Assembly: GCF_003268595.1 (NCBI RefSeq)
Contig: NZ_CP029797.1
Coordinates: 3,493,501-3,557,500 of the forward strand
DNA from: Paraliobacillus zengyii
GTDB taxonomy: Bacteria; Bacillota; Bacilli; Bacillales; Amphibacillaceae
Length of the DNA: 64,000 nt
Reading direction: 5' to 3'
Shown: piece after piece, positions 29,970 through 44,050 of the stretch
Position numbering within the stretch: the stretch's first letter is position 1
Layout: each line of letters begins with the position of its first letter
Translations under genes and position numbers: made by a program
Notes under the pieces: generated by a model
Seen by the model: only the letters and a program-made list of their open reading frames with translations
Told to the model about the DNA's origin: nothing
The model's database searches: none

Positions 29970-29997
29970 TAGACACATAAGATATCTGTGGTATACT
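29970..29997 (+). promoter_or_regulatory. Promoter of the S-box operon
   Basis: TAGACA (29970-29975), a 16-bp spacer and TATACT (29992-29997) make a plausible sigma-A promoter about 20 bases before the first aptamer. Confidence 0.65.
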
Positions 29998-30020
29998 CTA
30001 TTTAACATTAAACATTTATA

Positions 30021-30163
30021 AAGAGTGGACGAAAGATCTGGCTTAACGACTCCACGGCAACCTGCTCAGCAAGGTGCCCCTACCAGCAAAGCATAAGCTT
30101 TGGATGATGAAGTAATTCGCGGATTAAAACCCTCTTTCATCGTCAGTTGAAAGAGGGTTTTTC
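30021..30163 (+). promoter_or_regulatory. Divergent S-box-like riboswitch with terminator (first of two)
   Basis: The leader aligns with the SAM-I aptamer: AAGAGTGG, CTGGC, GGCAACC, AAGGTGC and CCAGCAAA occur in order and at the right spacing. It departs from the family in the usual AGAGGGA segment, in the GATGA segment (here ACGACTCC) and in the joining bases between GGTGC and CCAG. A strong terminator follows (AAAACCCTCTTTCA/TGAAAGAGGGTTTT, 30126-30162). SAM sensing is likely but not certain. Confidence 0.7.
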
Positions 30164-30183
30164 TTGCAAATAAAACAAAATAA

Positions 30184-30334
30184 CTCTTATCAAGAGTGGT
30201 AGAGGGACTGGCCCGATGACACCCAGCAACCATTAAGTTACTACTTAAAAGGTGCTAATTCCAGCAGATTCATTCTGATAGATAAGAAGAGCATGCATTT
30301 ACCGCCCTCTTCTTAAAGAAGAGGGCTTTTTTAT
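30184..30334 (+). promoter_or_regulatory. SAM-I (S-box) riboswitch with terminator (second of two)
   Basis: This is a canonical S-box: CTCTTATCAAGAGTGG, AGAGGGACTGGCCCGATGA, CAGCAACC, AAGGTGCTAATTCCAGCA and GATAAGAAGAG in order. The terminator stem GCCCTCTTCTT/AAGAAGAGGGC with a T run lies at 30304-30333, ten bases before the ribosome site of metY. With high S-adenosylmethionine, transcription should stop here. Confidence 0.95.
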
Positions 30335-30356: not shown

Positions 30357-32153
30357 ATGACAAAAGAAAAAAACACAACGTATGACATCGAAACTTTAGC
30401 ATTACACGGCGGGCAAGCTCCCGATCCAACAACTGGTTCACGTGCAGTACCAATCTATCAAACTACTTCTTATGTATTTCATGACTCTGAACACGCAGAA
30501 CGATTATTTTCGCTTGATGAACCAGGTAACATTTATTCAAGAATTGGCAATCCCACTGTTGAAGTTTTCGAAAAACGGTTAGCTCTATTAGAAGATGGTG
30601 TAGCTGCTGTTGCGACTTCTTCTGGTATGTCTGCCATTACGTTATCTATTTTAAATGTAGCCAGTGCGGGAGATGAAATTGTAGCAGCGATTAACTTATA
30701 CGGTGGAACATATAATCTTTTTGCTATAACGTTACCTCGATACGGAATCAATGTAAAATTTGTTGATCCAAGTAATCCAGATAATTTTAAAGATGCAATT
30801 ACTGATAAAACAAAAGCAGTTTTCGGTGAAATTATCGGTAACCCTAACTTACATGTTTTGGATGTAGAGAAAGTAGCTGAAATCTCACATGAGGCTGGTG
30901 TACCATTAATTATCGATAATACCTTTGCCACGCCGTATGTGTGTAAACCTATTTTACTCGGTGCCGATATTGTCGTACACTCTGCTACCAAATGGATAGG
31001 CGGACATGGTACTACAATCGGTGGAATTATCATTGATGGTGGTCGATTTAACTGGAATTCAGAAAAATTCCCAACTTTCACAGAGCCTGATCCAAGCTAT
31101 AACGGTATTCGCTATGCAACAGATTTCGGCACTTTAGCATTTAGTACGAAAGTCCGTGTGCAATTGTTACGTGATTTTGGTGCATCATTGAGTCCATATA
31201 ATGCTTTCCAACTTATCCAAGGATTAGAAACTTTACATCTACGTGTACAGCGCCATAATGAAAATGCAATTAAACTAGCCAACTATTTAGATAACCATCC
31301 AGCAGTTGATTGGGTTGATTATCCTGGGCTTGAAAGTCACAGTTCACATGCCTTAGCAAAGGATATTCTAAATAATGGTTTTGGTTCCATTCTCGTATTT
31401 GGTATTAAAGGTGGCCGAGATGCAGGAAGAAAATTGATTGATAATGTCTCGCTCTGGTCACACGTAGCCAATGTTGGAGATGCTAAATCATTAATAATTC
31501 ACCCAGCTTCGACAACACATCAACAATTATCAAAAGAGAAGTTAATTGAAACTGGTGTTAAAGAAGAATTGGTAAGATTATCTGTAGGTCTTGAATCGCT
31601 TGATGATATTATCCATGATCTAAATCAAGCATTAGTTAAGGCAACAGGTATTGGCAAAGGCGAAACAAATGACATTGTCATCAACGATGAAGGAATCATT
31701 AAATGGGCGTTAAACTCCCCTTACGAACGATTTGAAATAGATGGCGTTGAAAAAACAAGACAAAAGACGTTAGCCATTGTTGGATTAAGCGGTAAAGAAG
31801 CAAGACCAAGTTACCGTCTAGCAAGAAAAATGCAACGTCTCGGTTATAAAATCATTCCAGTTAACCCACGTGAAACAGAAATATTGGGTGAAAAAGCTTA
31901 TCCAGATTTAAAGAGTATCCCTGAAGCGATTGACATTGTTCAAGTATTCAGAAGTCCAGAAGCAGCAATTGGCGTTGCAAAAGAAGCAATTGAAGTCAAA
32001 CCAAGAGTCTTCTGGTTGCAAGAAGGTGTGGTCTCACCAGAAGCTGCTGCAATTGCCAGCGAAGCAGGATTAGAAGTAATCCATAACAGATGTACGTATA
32101 AAGAGGCACAACGTTTACGCGGGTCAATTTCAACATATGCATGTGAAATTTAA
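30357..32153 (+). CDS. metY: O-acetylhomoserine sulfhydrylase (MetY) fused to a CoA-binding domain
   Basis: A 598-residue fusion. Residues 1-435 are a Cys/Met-metabolism PLP enzyme of MetY type (TLALHGGQAPDPTTGSRAVP, SRIGNPTVEVFE, Schiff-base Lys212 in HSATKWIGGHG), which joins O-acetylhomoserine with sulfide or a thiol. Residues about 470-598 are a CoA_binding_2 (YccU-like) Rossmann domain starting TLAIVGLSG and ending near HNRCTYKEAQRL. The pairing is unusual, and the added domain may bind CoA or acyl-CoA to tune activity. It is the first gene after the tandem S-box. A GGAGGG site lies seven bases upstream of the ATG. Confidence 0.92.
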   Translation: MTKEKNTTYDIETLALHGGQAPDPTTGSRAVPIYQTTSYVFHDSEHAERLFSLDEPGNIYSRIGNPTVEVFEKRLALLEDGVAAVATSSGMSAITLSILNVASAGDEIVAAINLYGGTYNLFAITLPRYGINVKFVDPSNPDNFKDAITDKTKAVFGEIIGNPNLHVLDVEKVAEISHEAGVPLIIDNTFATPYVCKPILLGADIVVHSATKWIGGHGTTIGGIIIDGGRFNWNSEKFPTFTEPDPSYNGIRYATDFGTLAFSTKVRVQLLRDFGASLSPYNAFQLIQGLETLHLRVQRHNENAIKLANYLDNHPAVDWVDYPGLESHSSHALAKDILNNGFGSILVFGIKGGRDAGRKLIDNVSLWSHVANVGDAKSLIIHPASTTHQQLSKEKLIETGVKEELVRLSVGLESLDDIIHDLNQALVKATGIGKGETNDIVINDEGIIKWALNSPYERFEIDGVEKTRQKTLAIVGLSGKEARPSYRLARKMQRLGYKIIPVNPRETEILGEKAYPDLKSIPEAIDIVQVFRSPEAAIGVAKEAIEVKPRVFWLQEGVVSPEAAAIASEAGLEVIHNRCTYKEAQRLRGSISTYACEI

Positions 32154-43749: not shown

Positions 43750-43886
43750 TACTTTTTTAAAAAATATTTTACTAAAGATCTATTAAAGGGATTTTAGCTC
43801 ATTTGATTTTAGCTCATTTTACTTATTAGGTTTTCAATTTGCATTCAATCCTATATAATTCAAAGTAACTAAATGATCTTCATTTA
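43750..43886. other. Intergenic stretch with direct repeat and xpt promoter
   Basis: An imperfect direct repeat of TTTTAGCTCATTT lies at 43792-43825. TATAAT at 43854-43859 with TTTTCA at 43831-43836 (17 bp apart) is a likely promoter for the guanine riboswitch transcript. Confidence 0.55.
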
Positions 43887-44050
43887 ACTCGTATAAAAGC
43901 AGGAATATGGCCTGCACGTTTCTACCAGCTTACCGTAAATAGGCTGACTATGAGTAAGCATTTATAATTTTGAAAATTCTGTATCTATTCGATAGATAGA
44001 GTCTATATTATAAACCGCGGCTTACTCTTATGAGTATGTCGCTTTTTTAT
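43887..44050 (+). promoter_or_regulatory. Guanine-class purine riboswitch with terminator
   Basis: The aptamer (43887-43955) shows ACTCGTATAA, GGAATATGGCCTGC, GTTTCTACC, CCGTAAAT and GACTATGAGT. The base that selects the ligand is C in GACTATG, which indicates guanine or hypoxanthine, not adenine. A terminator hairpin (GCGGCTTACTC and GAGTATGTCGC, then T6) lies at 44015-44050 just before xpt. Confidence 0.95.

What the first reader, a model, noticed from the sequence alone, without database searches (positions are those of the whole stretch)
30021..30334. Tandem S-box riboswitches, the first with a divergent core
The leader of the metY operon contains two complete aptamer-plus-terminator units in series. 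The second is a canonical SAM-I switch. The first keeps the CTGGC, GCAACC, GGTGC and CCAGC framework but has altered sequence in the J1/2 AGAGGGA segment, the kink-turn GATGA segment and the J3/4 joining bases that line the SAM pocket. It may sense SAM with different affinity, or a related ligand, giving two-input or steeper control.
Basis: partly seen in the sequence, partly recalled or inferred. Interest (0 to 1): 0.72.

Follow-up and report, generated by a model that had tools for sequence, protein, structure and literature searches.

The report
Two SAM riboswitches before metY
The messenger RNA of a methionine-making gene begins with two SAM-sensing RNA switches in a row; the first looks odd because it belongs to a recurring, apparently unnamed flavour of the ordinary SAM-I switch that keeps nearly all the bases of the SAM pocket but has an unusually weak switching stem.

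Summary
The tandem is real. Both units are SAM-I (RF00162; cutoff 44.4 bits): unit 1 at 30013-30113 (65.6), unit 2 at 30184-30288 (88.2), each with its own terminator, before metY. Tandem SAM-I leaders are already published (164 doubles, one triple).

Unit 1 is divergent, but not in its main SAM contacts: A6, U7, G11, C44, A45, A46, C47, U57, G58, C59, A87 and U88 are kept. The one pocket-adjacent change is C8 to A. The rest lie in the scaffold: P2b, loop L2, A61/A62, and pair 64-85 (U-A to A-U).

These changes recur. I aligned 55 sequences of the subtype from the window's family, order and class. They stand before metY, msrA, an esterase-like gene and, most often (32 of 55), small proteins of unknown function. 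Their P1 is weak (mean -2.8 against -7.0 kcal/mol in 125 other SAM-I; unit 1: -1.1).

Most likely both units sense SAM and terminate in series, unit 1 probably needing more SAM. A changed ligand is unlikely but not excluded. Nothing was tested at the bench.

The parts
29970..29997 (+). Probable promoter (TAGACA, 16 nt, TATACT, with TG before the -10)
   Evidence: 10 of 12 consensus matches; the scan found 5 promoter-like sites against 4.9 expected, so position supports it, not the count. A similar TAGACA...TATAAT stands before the second unit in L010 and the first in L041.
30013..30113 (+). Unit 1: SAM-I aptamer of the short-P1 subtype
   Evidence: RF00162 65.6 bits, model 1-108; 55-sequence subtype alignment A3
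30013..30020 (+). P1 5' strand of unit 1 (faces 30106-30113); A8 at 30020 faces G86 and does not pair
   Evidence: Rfam alignment; duplex energy -1.1 kcal/mol
30033..30044 (+). P2b with 6-nt loop L2: AAG (30033-30035), loop AUCUGG, CUU (30042-30044); CUGG 30038-30041 forms the pseudoknot with CCAG 30083-30086
   Evidence: alignment; pseudoknot pairs formed in 55 of 55
30057..30077 (+). P3 with the adenine pocket: GCAACC (30057-30062) and GGUGC (30073-30077), SAM contacts kept
30078..30082 (+). J3/4 CCCUA: A61 and A62 replaced by C; A64 at 30082 pairs with U85 at 30105 (U-A in ordinary SAM-I)
   Evidence: contact roles from passages of PMC9580860 and PMC3764141
30087..30102 (+). P4 CAAAGC/GCUUUG, nearly fixed in the subtype
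   Evidence: 50 of 55 subtype sequences against 7 of 125 other SAM-I
30103..30144 (+). Predicted antiterminator 1: 30103-30112 with 30135-30144
   Evidence: ViennaRNA duplex -12.6 kcal/mol, local hairpin fold -10.5; appears in the fold without the terminator 3' arm
30126..30163 (+). Terminator 1 (14-nt perfect arms, then U run)
   Evidence: the simple scan did not list it
30184..30288 (+). Unit 2: ordinary SAM-I aptamer
   Evidence: RF00162 88.2 bits; P1 duplex -6.6 kcal/mol
30283..30315 (+). Predicted antiterminator 2: 30283-30291 with 30307-30315
   Evidence: -11.1 kcal/mol in both
30304..30332 (+). Terminator 2
30357..32153 (+). metY: O-acetylhomoserine sulfhydrylase fused to a C-terminal CoA-binding domain; regulated gene
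   Evidence: TIGR01326 660.6 bits, cutoff 495.1; PF01053 and PF13380
32166..36537 (+). Likely rest of the operon: SsuA-type binding protein, permease, ATPase, acetate--CoA ligase
   Evidence: co-transcription inferred from spacing and strand

Best explanation
The metY leader carries two independent SAM-I riboswitches in series, both OFF switches that terminate transcription when SAM is bound. In each, SAM holds P1 together and frees the terminator; without SAM the 3' strand of P1 joins an antiterminator and RNA polymerase reads on. Transcription reaches metY only if both stay antiterminated. Unit 1 is a member of a recurring SAM-I subtype that keeps the main SAM contacts but has a weak P1, a flipped 64-85 pair, mostly no A61/A62, and a nearly fixed P4. 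Its weak P1 against an antiterminator about as strong as that of unit 2 predicts that it needs more SAM, or slower transcription, than unit 2. The pair would then span a wider SAM range, with a tighter OFF state at high SAM. Shown here: family membership, kept contacts, recurrence, paired structure. Inferred: SAM binding, direction of switching, relative sensitivity. The confidence below is for two SAM-sensing OFF switches in series; for unit 1 being the less sensitive one I would say about 0.6.
For: RF00162 over cutoff for both units. A6, U7, G11, C44, A45, C47, U57, G58, C59, A87, U88 are fixed in 55 of 55 aligned subtype sequences, A46 in 53 of 55 (the P2b-P3 stretch up to GCAACC was part of the selection, so conservation there is partly by choice). 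The structure covaries: 14 of 37 pairs change on both sides, 0 of 500 shuffles as high. Terminator hairpins -19.9 and -17.5 kcal/mol; antiterminators form when the 3' arm is absent. P1 duplex -1.1 for unit 1, -6.6 for unit 2, mean -6.98 in 125 other SAM-I, none as weak as unit 1. A passage of PMC3656099 says SAM affinity rises as P1 is extended and the antiterminator shortened. Some targets fit SAM control: metY, msrA. The order subtype unit, ordinary unit, metY recurs by sequence in G031, G035 and G037.
Against: C8 to A changes a base that one paper counts among those around the pocket and the top P1 pair; P1 may be too weak to switch alone. J3/4 and L2, which dock P2b on the core, are remodelled. 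Energies are simple two-strand or MFE estimates without tertiary contacts; the MFE of neither full unit contains P1, and the antiterminator comparison depends on the method (unit 1 stronger as a duplex, -12.6 against -11.1; slightly weaker as a local fold, -10.5 against -11.1). One of five covariation measures, further pair types, was reached by 141 of 500 shuffles. Most partner genes of the subtype are of unknown function, so a SAM logic is not visible for them. G003 has a subtype unit before metY without a second unit by my pattern, so the tandem is not general.
Confidence: 0.82

Rival explanations
1. Unit 1 senses a different ligand (SAH, MTA, a polyamine or another methionine-related compound), so the leader is a two-input gate.
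For: Precedent: rare SAM-I variants, some from Oceanobacillus and Bacillus, sense spermidine (PMC10853860). The subtype has consistent scaffold changes, C8 to A in 9 of 55, and often precedes genes of unknown function.
Against: The spermidine variants change J1/2 and the P3 internal loop, bases important for SAM binding (legend); unit 1 and the aligned subtype keep those contacts. Genes seen include metY and msrA; by eye no polyamine gene among the 55 sites.
Confidence: 0.06
2. Unit 1 is a decaying copy without ligand response; unit 2 alone regulates metY, and terminator 1 only lowers the basal level.
For: Lowest score of 9 in the genome, broken 8-86 pair and P1 weaker than in all 125 other SAM-I compared.
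Against: Relatives keep the same kind of unit in the same place (L010, L041; G031, G035, G037). A8 is shared by 9 aligned sequences, so it is not private decay. Terminator and antiterminator are intact.
Confidence: 0.07
3. Two SAM switches of equal sensitivity: a plain pseudo-cooperative pair that only steepens the response. (This shares the SAM-in-series part of the best explanation and differs only on sensitivity, so the odds overlap.)
For: This is how the tandem review reads its 164 SAM-I doubles (PMC9481103 passage). The two antiterminators are of similar strength.
Against: P1 of unit 1 is about 5.5 kcal/mol weaker as a duplex than that of unit 2, and the two belong to different subtypes.
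Confidence: 0.2

Closest known systems
SAM-I riboswitch (S-box, Rfam RF00162)
   Same: Four-helix fold, k-turn, pseudoknot, SAM contacts, terminator/antiterminator platform; both units score above the family cutoff.
   Different: Unit 1: weak P1 with A8 facing G86, A64-U85 in place of U64-A85, C61/C62 in place of A61/A62, 6-nt L2 (also seen in some ordinary SAM-I), and the subtype's conserved P4.
Tandem SAM-I riboswitches (PMC9481103: 164 doubles, one triple)
   Same: Two SAM-I units in series, each with its own terminator.
   Different: Here the two units belong to different SAM-I subtypes; whether any of the 164 do was not visible to me. Natronobacillus azotifigens (L010) has a triple, which may or may not be the published one.
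Spermidine riboswitch, a SAM-I variant (PMC10853860)
   Same: Divergent SAM-I relative with a terminator platform, partly from Bacillaceae genera.
   Different: That class changes J1/2 and the P3 internal loop and sits before polyamine genes; unit 1 keeps those contacts and sits before metY.
SAM-IV and SAM-I/IV (same Rfam clan)
   Same: Similar SAM pocket (recalled; a cited title says so for SAM-IV).
   Different: Within the clan RF00162 is the best match for unit 1, and the full SAM-I model including P4 aligns.

Membership tests
SAM-I riboswitch RF00162 | Covariance score above the gathering cutoff over the full model | tested here: met
   65.6 and 88.2 bits against 44.4, model 1-108
SAM-I riboswitch RF00162 | P1-P4 four-way junction with L2-J3/4 pseudoknot | tested here: met
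   All helices and the pseudoknot align in unit 1; covariation on A3. P1 is weak: its pairs 1, 2 and 8 are broken in unit 1, and its outer pairs are often unpaired in the subtype.
SAM-I riboswitch RF00162 | k-turn tandem G.A pairs (19-36, 20-35) | tested here: met
   G19 kept in 54 of 55, A20, G35, A36 in 55 of 55
SAM-I riboswitch RF00162 | SAM-contact nucleotides | tested here: met
   Kept in unit 1 (roles from passages and partly recalled). C8, which one paper counts among the residues around the pocket, is A in unit 1.
SAM-I riboswitch RF00162 | Binds SAM and terminates transcription | not testable with these tools
   Needs in-line probing and single-round transcription
Pseudo-cooperative tandem riboswitch | Two aptamers, each with its own expression platform | tested here: met
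   Two terminators and two predicted antiterminators
Pseudo-cooperative tandem riboswitch | Both sense the same ligand with similar threshold | not testable with these tools
   P1 energies suggest different thresholds
Spermidine riboswitch (SAM-I variant) | Altered J1/2 and P3 internal-loop contacts | tested here: not met
   Unit 1 has G11, A12, C44, A45, A46, C47, U57, G58. The variant consensus figure was not readable; only its legend was seen.
Spermidine riboswitch (SAM-I variant) | Located before polyamine genes | tested here: not met
   metY operon; none recognised by eye among the 55 subtype sites
SAM-IV / SAM-I/IV | Best covariance match within the clan | tested here: not met
   RF00162 is the clan winner; one lower-scoring clan match was left out of the listing, so its score was not seen

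The most novel reading that the evidence does not exclude
The short-P1 subtype is a functionally separate SAM-I subclass with a swapped tertiary triple, tuned to high SAM (or to another signal such as SAM relative to SAH). Its core job is to control an uncharacterised family of about 108-residue proteins, and it has been recruited as a second, high-threshold gate in front of metY's own switch.
Probability: 0.2. Interest if true: 0.6.

Novelty: new variant of a known kind. Interest (0 to 1): 0.36.

Why it matters
The tandem itself adds one more case to a known list. More useful is that the odd first unit is not random drift. The same combination of changes recurs in many relatives, so SAM-I has a natural scaffold variant in which P1 strength and the 64-85/L2/J3/4 module vary while the pocket stays nearly fixed. 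That is a ready natural experiment on how SAM-I sensitivity is set. The subtype also points to small proteins of unknown function that are probably switched on when SAM is low.

Tried and rejected
Alternative ligand class: not the most likely, because the contacts changed in the spermidine variant are kept. SAM-IV or SAM-I/IV: rejected by clan competition. Chance match: rejected, E 4.8e-13 for unit 1 in the whole window. Decay: unlikely, see rivals.

Recruitment of unit 1 from a small-protein leader: a tree of 27 units with their platforms put the 9 A8 sequences on one side of a branch, but only with support 52/87, so this is suggested and not shown.

Fold search for the small protein: of 980 PDB matches, 0 with E <= 0.001; no function follows. 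Pfam gave nothing for 4 of 5 small proteins, and only matches below cutoff for the fifth.

A parsing slip: the two window rows were read from a wrong record and fell among the 9 of 130 rows that the pattern missed. Of the 121 parsed, 3 are subtype. Of the other 118, pair 64-85 is U-A in 114, A-U in 1, G-C in 1 and unpaired in 2. The 125 other SAM-I used for P1 and P4 were not cleared of near-identical sequences from close species. L133 was dropped from the subtype alignment by eye, as its P4-P1 end looks decayed.

Literature: the searches listed no paper that by title or abstract start describes this subtype. They cover open-licence PMC papers only. I saw listings, and for six papers passages or named sections (PMC9481103, PMC10853860, PMC9580860, PMC3764141, PMC3766115, PMC3656099), never a whole text. 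Work that I recall on natural variation of S-box sensitivity in B. subtilis was not read.

Full report
WHAT IS THERE. Rfam finds two SAM-I aptamers (RF00162) on the + strand: unit 1 at 30013-30113 (65.6 bits, E 4.8e-13) and unit 2 at 30184-30288 (88.2 bits, E 1.4e-19); the gathering score is 44.4. Each is followed by a terminator with perfect arms: 30126-30139/30148-30161 and 30304-30314/30316-30326 (the simple scan listed only the second). A promoter-like site lies at 29970-29997, though that scan finds no more promoter-like sites than chance. The gene behind is metY, fused to a CoA-binding domain, then an SsuABC-like transporter and an acetate--CoA ligase gene. The genome search found 9 SAM-I aptamers and unit 1 scores lowest.

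HOW UNIT 1 DIFFERS. Numbering is that of the T. tengcongensis crystal structure (mapping partly recalled; roles of positions from passages of PMC9580860 and PMC3764141). Kept: A6, U7, G11, A12, C44, A45, A46, C47, U57, G58, C59, A87, U88, both tandem G.A pairs and the pseudoknot. Changed: C8 to A (30020), P2b GGG:CCC to AAG:CUU (compensated), one extra base in L2, U34 to C, A61 and A62 to C, and the pair U64-A85 to A64-U85. Ordinary SAM-I can also have the longer L2. The published structure has a triple (A85-U64)-A24 and minor-groove contacts of A61/A62 with P2. Rfam's own consensus already pairs 64 with 85 (structure line), so the swap is compatible with the family.

THE SUBTYPE. The same features recur. 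AAGGTGCCCCTACCAGC with at most 1 mismatch occurs in 16 of 159 genomes of the family. The P2b-P3 motif CTGGCTYNNNGACTYCACRGCAACC with at most 1 mismatch occurs in 78 of 397 genomes of the order (80 places, of which 30 were fetched) and in 43 of 398 of the class (43 places, 10 fetched, 6 of these already fetched before). The two draws share genomes, and the window's genome is in all three. The control, each motif read backwards, was 0 in every row printed. Eleven motif-bearing loci were given to Rfam (L105, L107, L113, L118, L120, L124, L125, L143, L154, L157, L160) and all 11 matched RF00162 at that place, 64.3-75.7 bits. I aligned 55 distinct sequences (A3), that is the fetched ones, not all places found. 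The script asked for the P2b-P3 stretch, five bases between UGC and CC in J3/4, and some P4 hairpin; L133 was dropped by eye. Of the 55, 28 were fetched by the P2b-P3 motif alone, which does not choose bases in J3/4, P4 or P1; most of the rest came by the J3/4 motif, which contains A64, or by similarity to unit 1.

SUBTYPE FEATURES WITH COUNTS. Pair 64-85 is A-U in 45 of 55, G.U in 2, unpaired in 8; among the 28 it is 19, 2 and 7. In 118 other SAM-I parsed it is U-A in 114, A-U in 1, G-C in 1 and unpaired in 2. Positions 61-62 are CC in 40 of 55 but AA in 6, so the loss of A61/A62 is common, not universal. P4 CAAAG/CUUUG is in 50 of 55 (24 of the 28) against 7 of 125 other SAM-I. The P1 duplex averages -2.83 kcal/mol (sd 1.72, n 55; -2.94 in the 28) against -6.98 (sd 1.23, n 125, near-identical sequences not removed). 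Unit 1's is -1.1, weaker than all 125; unit 2's is -6.6. A8 occurs in 9 of 55. Covariation on the subtype alignment: 14 of 37 pairs with changes on both sides, 0 of 500 shuffles as high; slid structures fall to 31-44% paired against 90.8%; the measure 'further pair types' is not significant (141 of 500 shuffles as high). The outer three P1 pairs are mostly unpaired, which goes with the weak P1. Controls of this kind lean towards a structure taken from one of the sequences, as here.

GENES BEHIND THE SUBTYPE (read, largely by eye, 55 sites): metY 10 units; ABC transporter or ligase genes like those of the metY operon 3; msrA 3; alpha/beta hydrolase 5; small proteins of one look (MNxxGxxRGYMAK) 18, with 6 more divergent ones; 8 other small proteins (58-139 aa); 1 TPR protein; 1 none found. 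So 32 of 55 are small proteins of unknown function. For L090 the script picked another short ORF; I took the 93-residue ORF. Pfam was run on one msrA and one hydrolase only. A profile of the small-protein family matched 8 of 61 genomes searched, not the window's. In 7 of those 8 Rfam finds SAM-I just upstream; G002 (L164) has none.

TANDEMS. Of 80 metY loci (the best 80 of 148 relatives), 79 have at least one SAM-I within 1 kb upstream, 16 have two or more and 1 has three (from; L015 has none). Among the 80, only L010 (Natronobacillus azotifigens, two subtype units and one ordinary one) and L041 (Amphibacillus marinus) carry the subtype by my pattern. By sequence pattern the order subtype, ordinary, metY also holds in G031, G035 and G037; the subtype units of G035 and G037 are identical to those of L010 and L041, so these are three relatives, not five. 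G003 has one subtype unit and no second by the same pattern. The same-genus genome G001 has one ordinary unit before its more distant metY (65% identity) and a subtype unit before the small-protein gene. The tandem review counts 164 SAM-I doubles and one triple and calls them likely pseudo-cooperative (PMC9481103 passages). So the tandem is a known kind.

MECHANISM. Folded without the terminator 3' arm, both units form an antiterminator that uses the 3' strand of P1: 30103-30112 with 30135-30144, and 30283-30291 with 30307-30315. Their strengths are similar: -12.6 and -11.1 kcal/mol as duplexes, -10.5 and -11.1 as local folds. With the 3' arm the terminators win (-19.9 and -17.5 for the hairpins alone); the MFE of neither full unit contains P1, as expected if the ligand is needed to hold it. 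This is the standard SAM-I OFF switch. A passage of PMC3656099 cites work in which SAM affinity rises as P1 is lengthened and the antiterminator shortened. By that rule unit 1 should be less sensitive to SAM than unit 2. This is inference from simple energies without tertiary contacts.

ALTERNATIVES. The spermidine riboswitch shows that SAM-I can change ligand in related bacteria (PMC10853860; abstract, introduction, first part of results, concluding remarks and figure legends seen). Its changes are in J1/2 and the P3 internal loop, whose contacts unit 1 and the aligned subtype keep. I give a changed ligand 0.06. Decay is unlikely, because the unit is kept in place in other genera.

EVOLUTION. 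The A8 form is shared by the window unit, both Natronobacillus units and six small-protein leaders. A tree puts these 9 together with support of only 52/87. Recruitment of a small-protein leader into the metY leader is therefore a suggestion.

VERDICT. A tandem SAM-I leader of known kind, whose first unit belongs to a recurring scaffold variant that I did not find described in the searches made (open-licence papers only). Interest is moderate.

Noticed in passing
L115:1635-1958, L093, L114, L116, L117, L128, L130-L132, L134, L136 and others: A family of about 108-residue proteins (MNxxGFIRGYMAKN...) is the commonest gene behind the SAM-I subtype; no Pfam match for the member tested, 24 database matches (the query included), AlphaFold model with mean pLDDT 84, no significant PDB match.
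   Followed up: partly
L106, L107, L113, L118, L122, L123, after the terminator: Six small-protein leaders carry CACTCTTT after the terminator, complementary to the aptamer's 5' AAAGAGTG and, in part, to the GGAGTGA Shine-Dalgarno region seen in five of them (the L106 print ends there). This could be a second, translational switch on the same aptamer.
   Followed up: no
30357-32153: metY is fused to a C-terminal CoA-binding domain (PF13380); the 80 relatives kept match over nearly the whole protein, so the fusion is widespread among them.
   Followed up: no
L041:2274-2378 and the second unit before metY in L171 (G031): Unit 2 of these tandems has G64-C85, a third Watson-Crick type at the 64-85 pair (L041; L171: read).
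   Followed up: partly
L129, L135, L148, L149, L150, L152: A second small-protein type (about PEELEAFKxERYxKFIxP) stands behind the SAM-I subtype; no Pfam match for the two tested, L129 and L149.
   Followed up: no
43869-43970: Purine riboswitch, 86.1 bits.
   Followed up: no
L010:1907-2431: Triple SAM-I leader before metY in Natronobacillus azotifigens, with a promoter-like TAGACA...TATAAT between the first and second units.
   Followed up: partly
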